A program made the translations under genes and the position numbers. A stretch of 64,000 nt of DNA from NCBI GenBank assembly GCA_025062325.1, contig JANXAL010000045.1:62001-126000 (forward strand), written 5' to 3'. Below the pieces are notes generated by a model. The model had not been told where the DNA came from. It ran no database searches and saw nothing but the letters and a program-made list of their open reading frames with translations. Shown in pieces: positions 5,659 through 42,508 of the stretch. Source of the stretch: Roseiflexus sp. (lineage in GTDB: Bacteria > Chloroflexota > Chloroflexia > Chloroflexales > Roseiflexaceae). Numbering within the stretch: position 1 is the first letter of the stretch; each line of letters opens with the position of its first letter.

Positions 5659-6632
5659 ATCCTCTGCCGCCATTCGCCGCTGTAAGCATGGCAGCGTTGC
5701 TTGCCCCGCTTGCGCTGACGCCGCTCCGCGAGCAGTTGAACCCGGCTGACCTGCCGGGGGTTCAACATTTTGTGCGGGTCGGCGAGTACGACCTGCACTA
5801 CACCGATGAAGGACCGCGCGATGCTCCGGTTGTGCTGCTCGTCCACGGGTTTGCGGCATGGGCATTCGCCTGGCGTTCGCAGCGCGCCGCGCTTGCCGCC
5901 GCCGGACGGCGGGTGGTGACGATTGATCTCATCGGCTTTGGCGCATCATCCCGCCCTGCAGCGCCGGTCTACTCGACGCACGATCAGGCGCAACTACTGT
6001 TGCAGGCGCTCGATGCGCTCGAGATCGGGACGTTCGATGTGGTCGGGCACTCGTATGGCGGGCGGGTGGCGTTTCAGATTGCGCTGCTTGCGCCGCAGCG
6101 GGTACGGCGCATCGTTGCGATCTGCCCAGAGGCGTTCACCGTCGGACGCCCGCCGATCGCGGCGCTCGCCCGCCTGCCGCTGATCGGTCAGGCGCTCGCG
6201 TACTACGTCCTGGCGCCGTCACTGGTCGGTGTCGGGCTGCGGTCGCTCTCGAAACGCTACGACTGGCTGACCGACGAGGTGATTGCCGGGTATGCCGCGC
6301 CGCTGTACGTACGCGGCACGGCGGCGGCGCAGGTCTGGCAGGCGCGCTCGCCGAAGGATGGACCCCTGCCCGTGCCGGAGAACCTGACGTCGATCCGTCC
6401 GCCAACGCTGCTGCTGTGGGGCGATAGCGATAGGGTTTTTCCATTGGACGAGGGGCGTCGCCTGGAACGCATCCTCCCCGACGCCCGCCTGATTGTCTAC
6501 GACCGCACTGGCCACCTGCTCTACGAAGAACGCGCGGCGGAGGTGAATCGGGCGATTGTTGGGTTTTTGGTCGGGGGTAATCGTTGGGCGTCGGGGCAGA
6601 GCGCGGGCGTTGAGTCCGGTCGTGACGAGTGA
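5655..6632 (+). CDS. Alpha/beta-fold hydrolase
   Basis: A 325-aa alpha/beta hydrolase. The nucleophile elbow is GHSYGG within VVGHSYGGRVAF, the acid is probably the Asp in LLWGDSDRVFP, and the catalytic His is in RTGHLLYEE. The oxyanion region is VLLVHGFAAWAFAW. The N-terminus (about 20 residues) is hydrophobic and may be an anchor or signal. The substrate cannot be told from sequence; esterase, epoxide hydrolase and haloalkane dehalogenase relatives share these motifs. It is coupled to hflX by a 4-bp overlap. The C-terminal few residues run into repeat-like sequence. Confidence 0.9.
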   Translation: MNPLPPFAAVSMAALLAPLALTPLREQLNPADLPGVQHFVRVGEYDLHYTDEGPRDAPVVLLVHGFAAWAFAWRSQRAALAAAGRRVVTIDLIGFGASSRPAAPVYSTHDQAQLLLQALDALEIGTFDVVGHSYGGRVAFQIALLAPQRVRRIVAICPEAFTVGRPPIAALARLPLIGQALAYYVLAPSLVGVGLRSLSKRYDWLTDEVIAGYAAPLYVRGTAAAQVWQARSPKDGPLPVPENLTSIRPPTLLLWGDSDRVFPLDEGRRLERILPDARLIVYDRTGHLLYEERAAEVNRAIVGFLVGGNRWASGQSAGVESGRDE

Positions 6633-7032
6633 TGAGTGACGAGTGACGAGCGCCTGCCTGTCACCATTCCCGCTGCTCATGGGAGCGCGGGCCTCTTGCA
6701 CGCCTGCGCTCTCCGTGGCCCGAGCTCGCCCAGCGCCTCAGTCGCGGGCTACGGTTGCGAAGCCCGCCTTCGCGGGCTAGATCCGGCGATACCGGACTAT
6801 TTTCTCAAACTCCACGAGACCTGCCCTTACGCTCCATCTCCACCGCACTGTCGCTCTACCGGGTCTATGCCGCATTCCCGGATGCGCGCGGCGTGGACGG
6901 CGTGCTCCGCCATGCCCGCCGGATGTCTGATAATTCATTGATCCGACTCTCTGTCGTCCCCGCCATTGCCGGTGCCAGATCGCTACGCTAGAATATTCGG
7001 CATAGACCCGTCCACATTCAGGAGCCAATCCA
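6633..7032. repeat. Non-coding gap with GAGTGACGAGTGATGAG run and a shared 30-bp module
   Basis: Starts with a direct-repeat run (GATGAGTGACGAGTGACGAG, about 6630-6650) also seen near 15510-15545 and 58918-58940. Around 6742-6780 it has GCGGGCTACGGTTGCGAAGCCCGC, nearly identical to 15101-15125 upstream of the PHP gene. The rest shows no convincing gene. The last 70 bp contain a promoter for the next gene. Confidence 0.55.
6966..6994 (+). promoter_or_regulatory. Probable promoter of the EACC1-like/caspase locus
   Basis: TTGCCG (6966-6971), a 17-bp spacer and TAGAAT (6989-6994), about 38 bp before ATG 7033. An AGGAG site lies shortly before the ATG. Confidence 0.45.
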
Positions 7033-7467
7033 ATGACCGACCGCATTCTCCTTCAGGTGCTGCCAGTGGAAGAAGAGAGCGAAGACCTCGAAACGACGGC
7101 GGCGGCAGTGGATCTGACCGATCAGGCGCAGCGGGCGCTGGCGGCGGAAGGGTACGCGGTGCGCCCCGTCAGCGACGGTATGCGCGGTGATCTACTCGAG
7201 ATCGTTACCGGGCTGGCGCAAGCGGCGGTAGATCATAAAGCGGAACTGGCGGCGCTGATCACAGCGGCGATCGCCACCCTCAGCAAACTGTCGGAGCATC
7301 GCCGCATCGGGAAACTGGAGATCAGTCGCGGGAATGAGAAGCTGGTCATCGAGAACGCCGACCGCGCCGTGGTCGAGCGGACGGTGCGCGAGTTCGTGGA
7401 TCGTCTGGCGCCGTCCGGGTCTGCGCCGATCCGGGTGACGCAGCGCATTTCAAAGCGAAAGAGGTGA
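7033..7467 (+). CDS. Small protein resembling effector-associated constant component (EACC1-like)
   Basis: A 144-aa protein of uncertain family. It has a short N-terminal beta-type segment (RILLQVLPV), a central helix-rich stretch (LLEIVTGLAQAAVDHKAELAALI), then KLEISRGNEKLVIENADRA and a final helix VERTVREFVDRL with a basic tail. This order matches what is described for EACC1 proteins, small constant partners encoded next to caspase, TIR or trypsin effectors in predicted bacterial conflict systems. Here it lies 254 bp before a caspase-NACHT gene on the same strand, which supports the assignment. The similarity was judged by eye and is inference. A profile search against the EACC1 models would settle it. 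Confidence 0.55.
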   Translation: MTDRILLQVLPVEEESEDLETTAAAVDLTDQAQRALAAEGYAVRPVSDGMRGDLLEIVTGLAQAAVDHKAELAALITAAIATLSKLSEHRRIGKLEISRGNEKLVIENADRAVVERTVREFVDRLAPSGSAPIRVTQRISKRKR

Positions 7468-7721
7468 GATGTTCCAAAAACACCCTTGCGCCTGGACATC
7501 TGATGCGTTTCGCAGACAGGCGGACGCAAAGGTGCACAGATGGGAAGGCATAGATTGCAAACCTTCGCACCCTTGCGTCTGGAAGTCATTATCAAGGGAG
7601 ATCAGGTACAGGTTCTTTGCGCCTTTGTGCCTTTGTGTGAGCTTACTTGATTGCAAACTCTGCGTCTCTGCGTCTCTCTTTCCGAAAAACGTTGCACGCC
7701 TGCGGCTTCTGATGTTGACGT
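7468..7721. repeat. Repeat-derived gap before the caspase gene
   Basis: Contains several copies of simple phrases such as TTTGCGCCTTTGTGCCTTTGTG and CTCTGCGTCTCTGCGTCTC, which recur near 13335-13355. It also has inverted pairs such as CAAACCTTCGCACCCTTGCG near 7557. No coding signal. It lies between the EACC1-like gene and the caspase gene, so the two may be expressed from one transcript or separately. Confidence 0.5.
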
Positions 7722-10700
7722 ATGGCCCGGCCGACCCTGACCGAACGCTGTTTCGCCGTTTGCGTCGGCGTGAATGAGTACCACCCCGACGCCGGGTTGA
7801 GCGCGCTCCGCTACGCCGAGAATGACGCAAAAGCGGTTGATGCGCTGCTCGGCGATCTGGGCGTGCCGCCGGAGCAGCGCCGCCTGCTCTGCGGCGCTGA
7901 GGCGACGCTGGAAAACATCAACGCCGCCCTCGATGATCTGTTCATCAACCGCCCCGGTCCCAATGACCTGCTAATCTTTTACTACGCCGGTCACGGTGTG
8001 CCGGTCAGTTTCGACGACGCTGACCCAGAGGTGTTCCTTGCCTCCTGGGATTTCAACCGCGATCAGCTTCAGACAAAGTCATTTCGGCGCAAGCAATCGC
8101 TGAGCCTCGCGCGCCTGCGCACAGACTACTTCGAGGGCGAGGGTTCGCGCAAGCGGCTGTTCATCTTCGACAGTTGCTACAGCGGCGATTTCCTCGGTCC
8201 TGGCTACCGTGACGATGGCGTGAGGCTGGTGCTCAACGAGGTGCGCCGCCTGCTGCCCGGCGATGCGACGGGTCGCGTGGCGCTTGCCAGTTGCCTGGCG
8301 ACCCAGCGGGCGCGCGAGGACGAGGCGCTGAACCACGGGCGGATGACGTACTATCTGCTGCGGGCGCTGCGCGGCGACGACCCGGACGCCCGTGAGTCCG
8401 ACGGTTGGGTGACGGTGCAGAGCCTGCACAGCTACCTGGCGCGCAAATTGGAGCCATCCCAGCACCCGGTGCTCAGCGGCCAGTTCACCCGCATGCCGCT
8501 GGTGCGCTTCGACCCGCCGGCGCAGCCGCCCCCGCCGCCGCCCCTTGACCCCGGCGCGTACCTGCAACGGGTGATCGACCTCAACCGGCAGATCGACCTG
8601 CGCGGGTTGGGGGGACCGGTGGAGAAACTGCCGCTCGAACGGGTCTATATTGCGCTGAAAGCCGATGCCGCGCCGCCTGCCGAACGCCGTGCCGCCGCCG
8701 GGTATGTGCAGCAACTCATGCAGACCCTGGCGCTCGATGCGATCGATCCGTACCAGAAGCAGACGCAGATCCGCCGCGCGCTGGCGCGCGGCGACCCGAT
8801 CGCGCTGAGCCTGCTGCGCCGATCCGACGAAGGCGATGACAGACTTCTGCCCGACGGACGCCCTGCCCGCCTCAACCTGGGCGAACTGCTGGCGCGCGAA
8901 CGGTGGGCTGTGCTGCTCGGCGATCCCGGCGCCGGCAAGACGACGCTGGTGCGCTGGGCGGCGCTCACGTTTGCGCAGGCGTTGCAGGCAGGGCGTGAGC
9001 GCGTGATTGTGCCGGCGGCGCAGGTGCACGCCGATGCCGATGACCCCGACCGGCTGCCGGATGTCGATCTCGGTCCTGCGCGCCTGCCGGTGCTGCTGCG
9101 CCTCGCCGACTACGAAGCTGCGCGCTGGCAAGACGGGCGCGACACCAGCCTGACGATTGCCGACTATCTCGGTCGCCAGCCGTGGCAGGGACAGCCGTTG
9201 TTCACCGACCCGGAGCGTGGTCGGAAGCTGCTGCACCAGGCGCTCAACGAGGGGCGGGCGCTCGTCCTGTGCGACGGTCTCGACGAGATTACCGATCAGA
9301 CCCGCCGCGGGCGGGTGGTGGATGCGCTGATTGCATTTATCCGCGAGTATGTGCGCGATCCGGAGAGCAACGCCTGCCCCGCTGATGAGGAGCGCGCTAT
9401 CGGCGGGATCGCTGCGACGCCACCGGTCGAGCGTGGCGGCAACCAGATCATCATCACCAGCCGGATCGTCGGCTACTATCTGGCGCCGCTGCCCGCCGCC
9501 ATGCCGCACTACACCGTCGCCGAGCTGAGCGACGCCGCCATTCGCCGTTTCTGCGCGGCGTAGGGCGCGGCAGTGGCGGAGCAGACCGGCGACGCGACTC
9601 TGCCGGAGCGCGTGGCGGCGCTGGCGCAGGCGCTGGTTGATCGGCAGCGCCCCGATCTGCGTGAGCTGGCTGGCAACCCGCTGCTGCTCACTGCGCTGGT
9701 GGCGCAGTACGGCGCAACGCCGGGCGAACTGCCCCGCCGCCGGATCGAAGTGTACGACCGGGTGGCTGACGCCTTTCTCAAGCAACGTCCCGATGCACTC
9801 AAAGCGGCTGGCATCAATCGCAGCGAATTGCGCTACGCGCTGGCGCAGGTCGCGCTGCGGCTGCACGCCGATCCCGGCCATCCCACCGGATTTATCGAAC
9901 AGGACGAGCTGCGCGAATGGCTGACCGACGCGCTGAAGGCGATTGCCGCCACGCCGGAAAAGCGGCGGCGGGCGCCGATTGACGCCGACAGTATTATCGC
10001 GTATGTGCGCGAATACGGCGGTCTGTTTATGGAGCGTGGCGAGGGCATTTACGCCTTCCTCCACCGCAGCTTCCAGGAGTACTTTGCTGCGCTGGCGCTG
10101 AGCTGGGACCCCGAAGAGGCGACGCCGGACATCATTGCCCGCCTCGACGACCCGGCATGGCACGAGGTGTTGATCCTCGCCGTCGCCGACATCAGCCGGA
10201 CGAAGCCGCCGCTGGTTGCGCTGATGCGGGCGCTGCTGGCCGCCCCCGAACCGGCGCCGGGTCCGCTGCCGCGCAATGCCCTGTTCATCGCCCGCTGTGC
10301 TGGCGAGCTGATCCACCCGCCGCCGGAGGATGTGGTGGAAGAAACGGTGGCGCAGCTTATCGCTGCCTGCGCCCCGCGCGCATGGCCCGCCAGCGAGTCC
10401 GATGATGCGCCTGAACCGCTGCGCGACGCGGCAGTGACGGCGCTGAAGCAACTCTGGTCGCTGCCTGGCGCAGCGCGCAGCATTGCCCGCATGCTCAGCG
10501 CCGCCAACCCGGCGCAGCGCTTTGCCGCCGCTGATCTGCTGCTGGCAGGCGAACTTACCCATCCTGACCTCGTACCGGCGCTGATCGCCGCTGCCCGCGA
10601 TTACCTCGAACCAGTGGCAGTCATTCTCGTTGCCATCGAACTGCACGCTGAGTCCCATCCAGACGCCTTCACGCCGGTGTTGCTGCCGCTGCGCGGCTGG

Positions 10701-13244
10701 CTGCGCTCCGGCAAGGATGAGATCGATCCGGCGTGGCGCCTGCTGATCCGCGCCGTCTACACCCCGGCGTGGCGCGCGCCGGATGTCCCGCTCAGCGCCG
10801 ATGAGATCCTGCTCGACTCGCCGCTCACGCCGCTGCTTGAACCGCTCTGGCGGCAGCGCGCGGACCGCGCTGCCCTGATTGCCGCGCTGAAGGCTCACCG
10901 CGCTGCAGCGACCGACCCGGCGCTGGCGCGCGACCTGGCGCTGGCGCTGAGTGTGCTGACGAATGACGACTGGAGCGATCTGCCAGCGCCAGAGCGGCAG
11001 GCTGTGGCAGTGCGCATCACCTGGCGCTGGCTGAGCACAACCGTGCATCTGGCGGAAAAGCTCGACCGCACCCTCGCCCGCGCCCGCGACTTCGACCGCA
11101 ACCGCGCCCTCAACCTTGCCAGCGACCGCGCCCTCGTCCGCGCCCTCGCCCGCTCTCGCGACTTCGACCGCGACCGCGCCCTCGTCCGCGCCCTCGCCCG
11201 CGCCCTCGTCCGTGACCGTACCCTCGCCCGCGCCCTCGCCCGCCCCTTCGCCCGCTTCCTTGACCGTGCCCGCGCCCGCGCCCTCGTCCGCGACTACGAC
11301 CACGACCGCGACCGCGACCACTGGAATGAGATCTGCGATGAGATTGCGCAAGTGCTGGATCAGGCTGAGTCAGCAGCCGATGCCGGCGACCGTCCTGCCA
11401 TTGCACAGGCGCGAGCGGCGCTGTACGATGTGCGGGCGCTGGCGACAGAGAGCGGGTTCAATGAGTGGTCAATGGCGACGAATACCCTGGCGGACGAGGT
11501 GGAGCGCCACGCTGCGGCGCCAGCAGCGCTTAGCGGACGCGGCCGGGTGAGGCTGACGGCGACGACGCCTGACCCTGCTGCCTCGCTGACACCAGCGCTG
11601 CGTGCGGCATTGCAGTTGCCCGATGACAATGATCCAGGGCGCAGCGCCGCGCTGGAGCGGGTGCGGGACTGGCTCACGTCTGATGATCCGGTCGCGCGTG
11701 CCAGCGCCGGGTTGCTGCTACTCGAAGCGGGTGAGCGCGCACCGAAACACGTCACCGCTGCGCTCGACCTGCTGACCAGCCCGCACGATCTCTTCCGCTA
11801 CCGCGCTTACCGGGCGCTGGTGCGTGACACTGATGCCGACGAATGGCCGCTTCCGGCGATCAAAACGCTGGCGCGGGTGGCTCTGGGGCAGCACGGACGC
11901 GCAGACGCCCCGGCTGGCGAGGCTTATCTGCGTGAGATGTATGCCGGTTGGGCGCTGGACCGAATCAGGCATACCCGCGCCGACTGGATTGTGGAGTGGA
12001 TCGCACGGTCTGACGCTGGCGATCCGGTCAGTCGCCGTATTCTCAGATCGATCCACCGCCTCGCCGACGAGTGCTGGTCCCCCTTGCTGGACGGCCTGCG
12101 CACCGCCGGTCCCGCTACACAGGACGCGATCCTCGACTCGCTCTCCTGGCTGTTGCAGAATACGCCGCCTGACCATCCACACCTGCCAGTGGCGGTCGAT
12201 GCGCTGCTCGACCTGAGCGCCGCGCCGGCGCCGGTCGGACCGGCGGCGCTGCGGGCGCTCGGATCTGCCCGCGCCCTCAGCGCAGAACAGGCGGCGCGGC
12301 TCTGCCGGCTGGCGGAACAGCCTGATCCGCCGGAGGCGCTATGGGCAACCCTGGCGCGCCTGAGCGCGCTGCCGGATGCTGATGCGATCAATGCCGCCCT
12401 CGCCGCCGCACCGGATACATCCGCTGTGCGCGCTGCGCGGGTGCGGCAGGTTGTGCAGCGGTACTCTATCGCGCCAGAAAAACTGGCGGGGATTGCGCCG
12501 GAACCACGCGACCGCCTCGCCGCGCTGCTGGCGGCGGGGACGGATAACGATGTGTGGGGTGATTACCACGAGCGGATTGCTGATGCCATCCGCGATCTGC
12601 TTACTGCACATGATGACCTGCTACCGGAGTTGCTCACACTGCTGCACGCACCGCTCACCGATGAGACCTGGCCCGCGCAGCGCATCGCGCTGGCGGCGCT
12701 GGCGCAATGCGCTGCGGCGATGCCGGAGCGCTTCAATGACCTCGCCGCCACATCTGATCTGGTCACGCTGCTGCTGGCAATCACCGCGCATCCGCACAGT
12801 TTCAGCGCCCGACGCTTTGCAATCATTGCCCTCGCCGCGCTGCGCGAGATCAACGCCGACGTGCTGGCGGCGCTCTTCCGGCTGGCTGGTGATACGGCAA
12901 CAGTGCAGGACGATGTAATCGCTGCGGCGCAGCGGCTCAACCGGCTGCACCCTGCGCTCGGCGAACGGTTGCCGGAGGAATTAGTGCAGGCGCTCACCGG
13001 CGAGAGCGCCATCCGCGCCTATGTCGCGGCGCAGGTGCTCGAGGCGCTCGGCGCCTCGGCGGCGACGATGATCACGCCCGGTCTGCGCCGTCAGATCGTG
13101 ACAGTGCTCGCCGACGCTCTCCGCGACCCGCGCAGCCGGCGCAGCGTCTGGCGCTGGGATGGCGACGACATCAAGGAAGACGGCACGCTCGACCAGCACT
13201 TCTACCGGGCGCTGCTGCGGGTGGCGGGGTTCCGGGTGGAGTGA
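7722..13244 (+). pseudogene. Caspase-NACHT-HEAT-like STAND protein interrupted by an in-frame TAG
   Basis: Two open segments (7722-9563 and 9564-13244) lie in the same frame, separated only by TAG at 9561-9563. Read through, the product would be 1840 aa. Residues 1-270 form a caspase-like peptidase (family C14) with catalytic His91 in YYAGHG and Cys152 in FDSCYSG. Next is a Pro-rich linker, then a NACHT NTPase with Walker A GDPGAGKTT (about 400-408) and Walker B LVLCDGLDEI (about 518). The stop falls inside the NACHT helical region at FCAA*GAAVAEQ, where relatives carry an aromatic residue, usually Trp; TGG to TAG is one base change. The second segment continues without loss (NPLLLTALV, FLHRSFQEYFAAL), then a low-complexity Arg/Ala/Asp/Leu region and HEAT-like repeats that would act as sensor. 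Alternative start for the second half: GTG 9573. Confidence 0.8.
11080..11330 (+). repeat. Internal hexamer-based tandem repeats in the STAND gene
   Basis: DNA built from recurrent CTCGCC/CGCGCC/CTCGTC/CGCGAC hexamers. It encodes alternating segments such as DRALVRALARALVRD and ARARDFDRNRAL. The period is a multiple of three, so copy-number changes keep the frame. Located between the NACHT module and the C-terminal HEAT-like region. Confidence 0.7.
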
Positions 13245-13490
13245 AGCGACGGTCACGTGGGAGGCGTGATAGGACACGGATTCACACGGATCGAGATGGA
13301 TGTGCACGGATTGGAGGTAAGAGCACAACCTCCGCGCCTTTGCGCCTTTGGGTGCGATCAACAGCCTTCAACCTTCCCACTCTCGCGCCGTCATCCCCCA
13401 AGACCCTTGAGGTCAGGCGCACCCCCGCCGCAGGCGCGGATCATTTCGCCGCTGACGTTCCATCGCAAAACAGGGTCACCGGCGAAGACC
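13245..13490. repeat. Mixed dispersed repeats between STAND gene and SPOUT gene
   Basis: At 13273-13313 there is a left half-copy of the CACGGAT palindrome. At 13330-13360 there is a CGCCTTTGCGCCTTTGGG phrase. At 13395-13490 there is an ACCCTTGAGGTC element with its inverted partner (ACCTCAAGGGTCGGG, about 13488-13502). No gene. Confidence 0.55.
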
Positions 13491-14819: not shown

Positions 14820-15564
14820 ACGTTCTGTCCTTTTGTAACTGTTCGCGCTCTTCCTGGAAGCATGGGCGTTATGCGCGGCGTCTGGAGGCAGGGCGCCGCG
14901 CGTTGGCGCTTGCTGAGGCCATTCCGCCGCTTCTTCTTTTCGGGGGCTGCTCTCGAACCTCCGTTTTGGGCGACCAGGGGCATCGTTGACCCCAACTGTG
15001 ATGGATTCTGAACAAATATTCCGCTACCCGCTCACCGCCTGGCGCCTGATGGAGTTTGAACAAATATTCCGCGATCCACCTACCCGCCTGGCGCCTAAAG
15101 TCGCGGGCTACGGTTGCGAAGCCCGCCACTATAAGCGGATGAAGTTTCTCGAAGACCCTAACGGTTCTTCCTTCTGCACTCAACGGGCACAGACGATTGT
15201 CCAGCGCATTTGTCGTTGAGTATAGCACAATCGGTGGGTGATGACCGCAGTACAACTGACAGTCACGCGGGTGGTAGGGGGCAGCATCCCGGTCGGTTAG
15301 CGGCGCTCGAGGATTCGCAGGCGATCCAGGTCATGAGCACAGGTGACGGTCATCACCCAGGCGATAATGGGCGACATCCCGGTCGGTCGGCGAAACACAG
15401 GCATTCGCAGGCGATCCAGGTCAGTGAGCACAGGTGACGGTCATCACCGGGGCGGCATGCGGTTAGGAAGCAAAATGCCAGCATCAGCAGGCAACTTGCC
15501 CTCATCACTCATCACTCATCACTCGTCACTCATCACTCGTCACTGACAGCGGCAACGCTACGGG
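14820..15564. repeat. Long gap with two tandem duplications and shared repeats
   Basis: No supported gene in 745 bp. Contents: a duplicated 15-bp phrase GAACAAATATTCCGC at about 15009 and 15057 (period 48) followed by related CGCCTGGCGCCT text; the GCGGGCTACGGTTGCGAAGCCCGC module near 15101; a 90-bp tandem duplication beginning CATCCCGGTCGGT at 15285 and 15375; and a run of CATCACTCATCACTCGTCACT units at about 15500-15545. Confidence 0.6.
15285..15450. repeat. 90-bp tandem duplication
   Basis: CATCCCGGTCGGT begins at 15285 and again at 15375. Both copies continue with GGATTCGCAGGCGATCCAGG or GGCATTCGCAGGCGATCCAGG and then GAGCACAGGTGACGGTCATC. The second copy ends near 15450. A fragment of the opening phrase is seen near 59728. 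Confidence 0.75.
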
Positions 15565-33074: not shown

Positions 33075-33200
33075 TCGCTTGCCCCTTCGCCTCTCCTCTC
33101 TTGCCTCTCACCTCTCTCCTCGCGCCTCTCACCTCTCCCCTCTCGCCTCTCCCCGCTCCCCCCCTGCCTCTCACCTCGCGCCTCTCCCCTCGCGCTTCTC
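33075..33200. repeat. Polypyrimidine tract of CTCTCGCCTCTCACC units
   Basis: About 125 bp almost free of purines on the + strand, made of repeated CTCTCACCTCTC and CCTCTCGCCTCTCC phrases. Similar tracts lie near 17590-17640, 52445-52490 and 54770-54865. Mirror symmetry in such a tract could favour triplex DNA; that is inference. It lies between the ppk and thpR genes. Confidence 0.7.
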
Positions 33201-39277: not shown

Positions 39278-39769
39278 CTACAGGACCTCAATTATCACGT
39301 TTAAGATTTTATCGCCCTGGCGAATGGCGTTGACCACGTCCATCCCACTGACCACTTTGCCGAAGACGGTGTGCTTCCCGTCGAGGTGCGGCTGCGGCGA
39401 ATGGGTGATGAAAAACTGGCTGCCGTTCGTGTTCGGTCCGGCATTCGCCATCGACAGCACGCCGGTCTCGTGTTTGAGCGGATTCTTCTTCGGGTCAACC
39501 TCGTCTTCGAACTTATAGCCGGGACCGCCGCGCCCGGTGCCGGTCGGGTCGCCGCCCTGAATGACGAAGTTGCTGATCACACGGTGAAACGTGACGCCAT
39601 TGTAGAACCCTTCGTTCGCCAGGAAAACGAAGTTATTGACCGTTTTCGGCGCATAGGCGGCCGCCAGGTCAATGACAATCTCACCTTTGGAGGTCATCAT
39701 CCGCGCGCGGTACTGGCGCTGCGGATCGATCTGCATCGGCGGCGGGGACGACCATTGTTTGTGGGGCAT
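39278..39769 (-). CDS. Peptidyl-prolyl cis-trans isomerase, cyclophilin type
   Basis: A 163-aa cytoplasmic cyclophilin. Active-site features are [42 protein letters not shown] (20 residues) and [21 protein letters not shown] 39769 follows GAGGAACG; the frame extending to 39943 includes repeat DNA and was rejected. First gene of a three-gene cluster with the acyltransferase and DUF1405 gene (gaps of 6 and 3 bp). Confidence 0.95.
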
Positions 39770-39910
39770 AGCGCGTTCCTCGTTCACATACAAAGGGGCG
39801 GCGGTTAGTTGCCGCCCCGATATGCGCGAATCAATACGGAGTAGCAGAATTATAGCACAGGTTCGGCGATGGCGACTGCCGGGGTGCGAGTACGACCTGG
39901 CAAAAGGGGA

Positions 39911-39947
39911 ACACGGATTCACACGGATGCAACGGATTTCCACAGGT
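39911..39947. repeat. Half CACGGAT element, copy G
   Basis: AACACGGATTCACACGGATGCAACGG only; the right arm is missing. It lies just before a possible -10 TATAAT (39963-39968) that would serve the cas operon 52 bp further on. Confidence 0.6.
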
Positions 39948-40019
39948 CTCCCGGCAATAACGTATAATGGTCAACTAACGCGCTTCCTTCGCTTCTGTTT
40001 TTGTTCTCGTGACTGGACA

Positions 40020-41033
40020 ATGGCAGACATCCGCCTCAAAACCCTGACCCCGCTCTGGACCGGCGGCGTGGACGGCAGGGCGGACCGCGTCCACGAAACC
40101 GGCCTGCTCGGCAGCCTGCGCTGGTGGTATGAAGCGATTGTGCGCGGTCTGGGCGGAACGGCGTGCGATCCGAGCAGGGGTGAATGTCAGCTTGGCACTC
40201 AAATGTGCGATGTCTGCCAGCTCTTCGGCGCCACCGGCTGGCGACGGCGGTTTCGGCTTGCCGTGATCAATGATCAGACCGCTCCGCTCTGGCAGGGCGA
40301 TCAACTCCTGAACATCCGCCCGCCGGGGCGTAACCGGGGGTGGTTCCTGCCGCCGGGACGAATGGGCGAGTTCACCCTGCGGCTTGATAGCGACCAGGAG
40401 AGCATTGCGCGCGTGCTCGCGCTGCTGCGCTTCGTTGAGCGCTGGGGCAGCCTCGGCGCAAAGCCGCAACTGGGGTATGGGGTGGTGGAAATTCAGAATT
40501 GGGACGAGCTCAGGAGTCAACTGAACGGCTTCTCCTGGAAACAGGCAGCACAACAGCTGGCGCCCAACAAACAGACAAGCAATCCTGGTTTGCCCAACCT
40601 GTGCGACTTCGGCTTCTTCCGTTACCGCTTCCAACCGCCCGACCCGGCGTGGTGGAGTCGGATCGGCGGCTTCGAGCGCGTGACGATACAGGTGCGCCCA
40701 TTTGCCACCCAGACTGTGCCGGTCGCTCCGGCGCTCAAGAACGCCTGGCGTTTCCAGCACTGGCAGCGCGCATGGGGGGATGACCAGCGCTTCTGGGGGC
40801 GCGTCGCTGCTGATCGCATACGCGGCAGGGTTGCCGTAAGCTGGGCATATCCGCACGACAGCGGCTGGGAGATCCGCGGCTCGGCATGGCTGGCAGATGT
40901 GCGAGATGACCTCGTGTGGCAAATGTTGATCGACGCCAGGATCTGGAATACGACGCTGGGCGTGAGCGGGAAGCTGGAGACCGAGGGGCCGCAGAAGAAA
41001 GACGCCCTCCTGACATTTCTGGAGCGCATATGA
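40020..41033 (+). CDS. cmr1: Type III CRISPR RAMP protein Cmr1
   Basis: A 337-aa RAMP of the Cmr1 family, the subunit that caps the 3' end of a type III effector filament. It begins MADIRLKTLTPLWTGGVDG, followed by ETGLLGSLRWWYEAIVRGLGG and a Cys-containing CQLGTQMCDVCQLFGATGWRR (given here in part), the standard Cmr1 order. The conserved G-rich segment appears as WGSLGAKPQLGYG. ATG 40020 was chosen at the conserved start; a longer upstream frame crosses repeat DNA. The stop overlaps the next ATG (ATGA). First gene of an operon that runs to 50640. Confidence 0.92.
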   Translation: MADIRLKTLTPLWTGGVDGRADRVHETGLLGSLRWWYEAIVRGLGGTACDPSRGECQLGTQMCDVCQLFGATGWRRRFRLAVINDQTAPLWQGDQLLNIRPPGRNRGWFLPPGRMGEFTLRLDSDQESIARVLALLRFVERWGSLGAKPQLGYGVVEIQNWDELRSQLNGFSWKQAAQQLAPNKQTSNPGLPNLCDFGFFRYRFQPPDPAWWSRIGGFERVTIQVRPFATQTVPVAPALKNAWRFQHWQRAWGDDQRFWGRVAADRIRGRVAVSWAYPHDSGWEIRGSAWLADVRDDLVWQMLIDARIWNTTLGVSGKLETEGPQKKDALLTFLERI

Positions 41034-42508
41034 TCGAACGTATCCTGATCCACCGCTTCCGCGGCATCCGGCAGGGCGATCTGAAGGATCTGCGAAAGTT
41101 CAATGTCTTCATCGGACCGAACAACAGCGGCAAGACGGCGTTGCTCGAGTTGCTGTACCTCAGCGCCACCAGCGGCCGGCCCGTGCAGTTCATCCGCGAT
41201 GATTTGCTGCCCGCCGAAACCGGCGCCCTCAGAGCCGCCACGTCGGTGCGCACCGATCTGCTGGGGTGCGAGCCGTTGCCCTACCTGCGCCAGCGCCACG
41301 GCAAACGCGGCGAATGGTTGGACAATCCGGCAGTCGTGACGGCGGAAGGCGGACTGGAGATCGATCTGCGCCGCCTTCCGATAGATAAGGTCGCACCGCC
41401 GTGGTCAACCTTCCGCCTTGGCGCGCCGCTGCCGGAGTGGGGAGCAGAAGACCGCTTCACCCAGGACGACATCGCCCGGATTGCCATGGTGACGCTGGTG
41501 CATCCGCAGGTGCTCGACGACAGCATGATCCCGCCATGGATTGCGGGAGCAGTTAGACCTGTTGCGCCAGCCAGTGCGGAGTCCGTACCACAGACTGCAG
41601 GCGCCATGATTGCCGAACAGAGCCAATCGTATACCGCAACGGGCGAAGCGACTGCCGCCCAAAGAGCGACGCTTCAACAGGCTCACCGCGAGGCAGGCGA
41701 GCAGGAAGCAGAACGTGATAGCGCTGCTCTGGACTGGCACTACCTCTGGGAACCCGACTGGGTCTACCGCTGGGATCAGCGCCACCCGCTTGATCGCCTG
41801 GCGGTGTGGGTGACGCAGGGACAGCGCCCGCATCCTGAACGGGTTCTGTTCTACAACTTCACGACCGCTGGCGCCCATTTCACCGGCCAGTTTGCCAGAT
41901 GGGCATACCGCACCGTGACCGACTGGCACGAAAAGATAGCTGCCCGCATGGCGGACGTGTTTCCGGCGCTCAAAGATGCGAAAATCGAAGTGCTGGACGC
42001 ACCCGATAATCAAACGGGGCGCACCGGCTATGTGCGCTTCCCCGGTCGCACCCCGCTTTCCATCGACCACTTTGGCGACGGCGCGCGCCACGCCTTCAAA
42101 CTGCTCGCGCCGCTGATCGCCCTGGCTGAGACAGTGGACGATGCGAATCCGGGGTTGGTGTTGTGGGAGGAGCCGGAGGCATTCATGCACGCGGCGACCC
42201 TGGGACGCCTGCTGAATGTCGTGATCGACATCGTTGCCAGTAAGCCAATGCAGGTGTGCCTGACAACCCAGAGTCTGGAGGTTCTGGCCTGGCTGGCCCT
42301 CTATCTCGACGAACAGTCAGCTATCCAACCAGAGCAGGTCGGTACGTTCCATCTCAACCTGGAAGACGGAGAGTTGCGCGTGCGGCCATTCATCGGAAAA
42401 GCGCTGGGCGGATGGCTGCGCTTCTTTGGTGATCCGCGCCTGATCGAAGAGGAGGAACTGGCGTCACCGCTGACTCGCCTGCTGAGCGTTCGGGAGGAGC
42501 GCGAATGA
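41030..42508 (+). CDS. ABC/OLD-type AAA ATPase embedded in the cas operon
   Basis: A 492-aa SMC/ABC-like ATPase of the AAA_15/OLD type. Walker A GPNNSGKT (residues 29-36) follows the typical opening HRFRGIRQGDLKDLRKFNVFIG (in part). A large middle domain comes before a signature-like FGDGARHAFKLLAPLIA and Walker B VLWEEPEAFMHAAT. The usual TTHSxE His switch reads TTQSLE, with Gln in place of His. It has no TOPRIM domain of its own; the next gene supplies a TOPRIM-like protein with a 4-bp overlap. OLD, Gabija and PARIS use ATPase plus TOPRIM pairs in phage defence. Here ATPase and partner sit between two RAMP genes. Function is inferred. Confidence 0.88.
   Translation: MIERILIHRFRGIRQGDLKDLRKFNVFIGPNNSGKTALLELLYLSATSGRPVQFIRDDLLPAETGALRAATSVRTDLLGCEPLPYLRQRHGKRGEWLDNPAVVTAEGGLEIDLRRLPIDKVAPPWSTFRLGAPLPEWGAEDRFTQDDIARIAMVTLVHPQVLDDSMIPPWIAGAVRPVAPASAESVPQTAGAMIAEQSQSYTATGEATAAQRATLQQAHREAGEQEAERDSAALDWHYLWEPDWVYRWDQRHPLDRLAVWVTQGQRPHPERVLFYNFTTAGAHFTGQFARWAYRTVTDWHEKIAARMADVFPALKDAKIEVLDAPDNQTGRTGYVRFPGRTPLSIDHFGDGARHAFKLLAPLIALAETVDDANPGLVLWEEPEAFMHAATLGRLLNVVIDIVASKPMQVCLTTQSLEVLAWLALYLDEQSAIQPEQVGTFHLNLEDGELRVRPFIGKALGGWLRFFGDPRLIEEEELASPLTRLLSVREERE

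What the first reader, a model, noticed from the sequence alone, without database searches (positions are those of the whole stretch)
9561..9563. One amber codon splits a caspase-NACHT STAND gene
The two halves are in the same frame, the NACHT domain is continuous across the TAG, and relatives carry an aromatic residue here, so TGG to TAG is the simplest history. Everything after the stop remains open for 1226 codons with clear coding features, which suggests a very recent mutation, a sequencing error, or a tolerated stop (readthrough or separate synthesis of a caspase-containing half and a sensor half).
Basis: partly seen in the sequence, partly recalled or inferred. Interest (0 to 1): 0.6.

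Follow-up and report, generated by a model that had tools for sequence, protein, structure and literature searches.

The report
Amber stop shared by two Roseiflexus
A bacterial immune-receptor-like gene (caspase plus NACHT switch plus sensor) carries a stop codon in its middle that is real, because a second Roseiflexus species has the same stop, and the gene still shows signs of selection, so the cell probably tolerates the stop rather than having just lost the gene.

Summary
TAG 9561-9563 is codon 614 of one 1840-codon frame (7722-13244) encoding a caspase-NACHT protein with a long C-terminal region. Trp occupies this position in all seven relatives without the stop, and the NACHT fold runs across it. 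Sequencing error is ruled out in practice: a second Roseiflexus species (MAG SKYG45) has the same TAG in a gap-free 97%-identical copy differing at 94 of 3049 sites, at the same chromosomal site. Flanking genes differ far more (dS 0.28-0.36 versus 0.07), so the island was exchanged between species. dN/dS between the copies is 0.30, like an intact homologous pair (0.33); but in the block sharing the TAG's history, significant constraint is shown only before the stop (8 changes after it, too few). No amber-suppressor tRNA, special RNA structure or strong restart site was found. Best reading: a tolerated nonsense allele making mostly a truncated caspase-nucleotide-binding protein, perhaps with a little full-length product by leakage. 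Slow decay is the main rival. In-frame stops with dN/dS below 1 are documented in bacteria, so this is a member of a known kind.

The parts
7033..7467 (+). Small gene (144 aa) upstream of the caspase gene; a related small gene precedes a caspase gene in two other genera
   Evidence: 98% identical in G002 with dN/dS 0.13; pair conserved in G059 and G086; no Pfam family, EACC1 not matched
7722..9563 (+). First half: caspase (Peptidase_C14) plus NACHT nucleotide-binding domain, 613 aa, ending at the TAG
   Evidence: Pfam PF00656 E 2.8e-12, NACHT below cut-off; catalytic His91 and Cys152, Walker A 400-407, Walker B region 514-522, ITSR 578-581
9561..9563 (+). In-frame amber codon (codon 614) where relatives have Trp
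9564..13244 (+). Second half: rest of the NACHT module (HD1, winged helix, HD2-like helices) and long C-terminal region; open for 1226 codons
   Evidence: intact single frame in the Chloroflexus orthologue
9573..9575 (+). First in-frame start-like codon after the stop (GTG), possible reinitiation site; weak, unremarkable Shine-Dalgarno pairing

Best explanation
Shown: a caspase-NACHT receptor gene acquired one TGG-to-TAG change, and the TAG allele is present in two Roseiflexus species at the same chromosomal site. Inferred: the allele is tolerated and still expressed. Ribosomes mostly stop at the TAG and release a 613-residue caspase plus nucleotide-binding-domain protein, while occasional UAG readthrough by near-cognate tRNAs yields a little full-length receptor, which could suffice for a self-activating death or defence protein that is dangerous at high dose.
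For: Same TAG in a copy with no gap and no other stop in 2738 coding bases and 94 differences over 3049 bases; linkage to the same site by contig C477, which carries the flanking genes and overlaps C18 by an exact 122 nt. dN/dS 0.30 between the copies, no higher than 0.33 for the intact G001/G047 homologue pair. Pre-TAG constraint p 0.0055 against a mutation-spectrum null; codons 745-912 dN/dS 0.19. No second stop or visible frameshift in 1226 codons after the TAG. Conserved in-frame stops with dN/dS below 1 are known in bacteria (PMC7918605).
Against: Only 8 substitutions lie after the TAG within the block that shares its history, too few to test; the older block beyond 9954 may have been constrained mostly before the TAG arose. 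G002 covers only to codon 912. The invariant Trp was lost. No suppressor tRNA, no unusual RNA fold. No expression data.
Confidence: 0.4

Rival explanations
1. Decaying allele: the TAG inactivates the receptor, the gene is no longer useful, and it persists because decay is slow and the island moves by recombination.
For: Trp lost at an invariant position in mid-helix; four other Roseiflexus species lack the island and G005 keeps only edge remnants, so the gene is dispensable; post-TAG constraint in the linked block is untested. Most conserved in-frame stops are short-lived (PMC7918605).
Against: dN/dS 0.38 before the TAG, p 0.0055; no indel or further stop in either copy; ratio equal to an intact homologue pair.
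Confidence: 0.3
2. Two-protein receptor: ribosomes terminate at the TAG and restart at GTG 9573, so caspase-NBD and the HD1/winged-helix/sensor half are made separately and reassemble.
For: An in-frame GTG lies 9 bases after the stop; the cut is next to the NBD/HD1 boundary.
Against: Shine-Dalgarno pairing at GTG 9573 is ordinary (26th of 89 in-frame start-like codons) and slightly weaker with TAG than with TGG; the cut is inside a helix, not in a linker; no relative has two genes here.
Confidence: 0.15
3. The truncated caspase-NBD protein alone is the selected product and the second half is a relic.
For: Significant constraint in the TAG-linked block is demonstrated only for the first half; caspase His and Cys intact.
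Against: The second half has no second stop over 1226 codons.
Confidence: 0.13
4. Sequencing or assembly error.
For: The second copy is from a metagenome assembly, and the window's genome is in 143 contigs.
Against: Same TAG in two assemblies that differ at 94 of 3049 positions.
Confidence: 0.02

Closest known systems
Conserved in-frame stop codons in bacterial genes (Belinky et al. 2021, PMC7918605)
   Same: Same stop at the same position in orthologues of two species, dN/dS below 1
   Different: Carried here by a horizontally exchanged caspase-NACHT island; only two alleles available, and the post-stop constraint is not cleanly dated
EACC1-caspase two-gene conflict system (Kaur et al. 2020, PMC7159879)
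   Same: Small 5' gene followed by a gene with N-terminal caspase fused to a STAND NTPase
   Different: The small gene does not match the EACC1 model PF19953
Metacaspase-NACHT proteins of bacteria (Asplund-Samuelsson et al. 2012, PMC3501461)
   Same: Caspase plus NACHT in one protein, known from Chloroflexi among others
   Different: Interrupted by an amber codon; C-terminal region without WD40 or other Pfam match
Animal NLRs and bacterial bNACHT/Avs proteins
   Same: NACHT NBD-HD1-winged helix module; best structural matches NLRP3, NLRC4, NOD2
   Different: Caspase in the same chain as effector; TAG within the module; antiphage role not tested

Membership tests
Caspase-NACHT STAND (NLR-like) protein | Caspase domain with catalytic His and Cys | tested here: met
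   PF00656 E 2.8e-12; GHG and DSCYSG motifs
Caspase-NACHT STAND (NLR-like) protein | NACHT NTPase with Walker A and B, NLR-type fold | tested here: met
   Motifs; Foldseek to NLRP3 E 2.1e-9; Pfam NACHT itself below cut-off
Conserved in-frame stop in a selected gene | Same stop in orthologues of two or more species | tested here: met
Conserved in-frame stop in a selected gene | dN/dS below 1 downstream of the stop since it arose | tested here: inconclusive
   0.23 overall after the stop, but only 8 changes in the TAG-linked block
Amber recoding by suppressor tRNA | tRNA with CUA anticodon | tested here: not met
   46 tRNAs, none with CUA; genome 97% complete
EACC1-caspase two-gene system | 5' gene of the EACC1 family | tested here: not met
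   No PF19953 match at this gene
Antiphage defence system | Protects against phage | not testable with these tools
   No experiment; the PADLOC caspase model matches only the caspase part

The most novel reading that the evidence does not exclude
The amber codon is a selected dosage or assembly control of an NLR-like death receptor: it sets the ratio of free caspase-NBD to full-length receptor, or splits the receptor in two, and has been spread between species in that form.
Probability: 0.12. Interest if true: 0.7.

Novelty: new member of a known kind. Interest (0 to 1): 0.37.

Why it matters
It is a clean natural case of a stop codon in a bacterial NLR-like gene shared across species, so it can test whether immune-type genes tolerate or use nonsense codons, and it warns that automatic pseudogene calls on such genes may be wrong.

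Tried and rejected
Sequencing error (rejected). Misbinned contig in G002 (rejected: C477 carries 88%-identical flanking genes plus the 98% small gene and has an exact 122-nt overlap with C18). Idea that the G-to-A change created a Shine-Dalgarno site (rejected: -3.9 versus -4.8 kcal/mol for TGG). Amber suppressor tRNA (none; the one ARAGORN missed reads as anticodon GAC by eye). Stimulatory RNA structure (z 0.53). Genome-wide TAG recoding (rejected: TAG ends several window ORFs, among them one with a Pfam cytochrome b561 match). EACC1 identity of the small gene (no match). Relatives in viral contigs (none). Close solved relatives by sequence (only one weak match).

Full report
Observation. The ORF from ATG 7722 ends at TAG 9561-9563 after 613 codons, and the same frame continues without a stop for 1226 codons to TGA 13242-13244. 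Pfam finds a caspase domain (residues 10-253, E 2.8e-12 on the first half) and a sub-threshold NACHT match. Catalytic His91 and Cys152, Walker A (400-407), the Walker B region (514-522) and ITSR (578-581) are intact. The second half has no Pfam match on its own.

What stands at codon 614 elsewhere. The orthologue in an uncultured Chloroflexus MAG (G040, locus L025) is one intact frame of 1936 codons with Trp here. Homologues in another Roseiflexus (G001) and in G047, and four Streptomyces STAND proteins, also have Trp; it is an invariant column. AlphaFold2 on the read-through NACHT segment (residues 270-912; pLDDT 73.6, pTM 0.70, nine sequences) places it in the helix of residues 604-622, which follows the last strand of the nucleotide-binding domain. 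Foldseek's best matches are NLRP3, NLRC4 and NOD2. So one NACHT module is cut inside a helix next to the NBD/HD1 boundary; that this helix marks the boundary is my reading of the NLR fold.

The stop is real and shared. Among 158 genomes of the class, strong relatives occur in only five others. One, Roseiflexus sp. SKYG45 (G002), has the same GCG TAG GGC in a 3049-base contig 97% identical to the window without a gap, with no other stop in the 912 codons it covers. Ninety-four differences separate the two copies, so they are different molecules and an error at the same base in both is very unlikely. Misbinning was tested: contig C477 of G002 carries hflX and the hydrolase gene at 88% identity, then the small gene 7033-7467 at 98%, and overlaps the caspase contig by an exact 122 bases. 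The island therefore sits at the same place in both species. Flanking genes have dS 0.28-0.36 against 0.07 in the caspase gene and small gene, so the island was exchanged between the lineages or came from a common donor. Four other Roseiflexus species have no island between the hydrolase and the SpoU-type methyltransferase gene; in G005, where the two flanks lie on different contigs, 55 bases of its left edge stand next to its right edge.

Selection. Between the two TAG copies dN/dS is 0.38 before the stop and 0.23 after it. An intact homologous pair (G001/G047) has 0.33 overall and 0.41 in the region after the Trp, so the TAG copies show no relaxation. Two cautions. First, divergence jumps at about position 9954 (2.3% to 6.9%; none of 300 permutations as strong), so the region beyond has an older history and part of its constraint may predate the TAG. 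In the block linked to the TAG (codons 1-744) constraint is significant before the stop (p 0.0055), but only 8 changes lie after it (p 0.26). Second, the TAG lies in a 155-base identical stretch; stretches as long occur elsewhere (largest spacing 213 bases), so this is not unusual, but later transfer of the TAG by a short tract cannot be excluded.

How it might be decoded. No tRNA with a CUA anticodon is among 46 tRNA genes of the 97%-complete genome (the gene missed by ARAGORN reads as anticodon GAC by eye). TAG is an ordinary stop for several window ORFs. RNA around the stop folds no better than shuffles. The first restart codon, GTG 9573, has ordinary Shine-Dalgarno pairing that the mutation did not improve. 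So there is no positive sign of a programmed device. Low-level UAG leakage by near-cognate tRNAs, known in bacteria generally, needs no such device; this step is inference.

Comparison with what is known. Conserved in-frame stops under dN/dS below 1 have been surveyed across bacteria, with the caution that most are short-lived (PMC7918605). Caspase-NACHT proteins in Chloroflexi are described (PMC3501461). The layout of a small 5' gene followed by a caspase-STAND gene resembles the EACC1-caspase two-gene systems (PMC7159879), and a related small gene precedes a caspase gene in G059 and G086, but the EACC1 model does not match, so membership is not claimed.

Verdict. A genuine, shared amber allele of a bacterial NLR-like gene, most likely tolerated (0.4), with slow decay as the chief rival (0.3), then reinitiation (0.15) and function of the first half alone (0.13). 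Modest interest: a good test case rather than a new mechanism.

Noticed in passing
11061-11316: Degenerate 12-base-unit tract encoding an Arg/Leu/Ala/Asp-rich stretch (ALARALVRD...); strongly variable between homologues of the same gene (also visible in L025 and L042).
   Followed up: partly
7033-7467: Small gene without a Pfam family that precedes caspase genes in at least three lineages; looks like an uncatalogued partner of caspase effectors.
   Followed up: partly
about 6570-13490: Caspase island present in two Roseiflexus species and apparently exchanged between them, absent in four; G005 keeps only its edges.
   Followed up: yes
8079-11351 (- strand): Antisense frame open for 1090 codons across most of the gene and its stop; probably a by-product of high G+C coding sequence.
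   Followed up: no
6724-6814, about 14999-15127 and 33087-33200: Short interspersed sequences with many roughly 80-93% identical copies in other Roseiflexus genomes.
   Followed up: no
39672-42508: By eye, a Cmr1-like CRISPR type III gene next to an ATPase gene that looks like an OLD-type nuclease or AAA protein.
   Followed up: no
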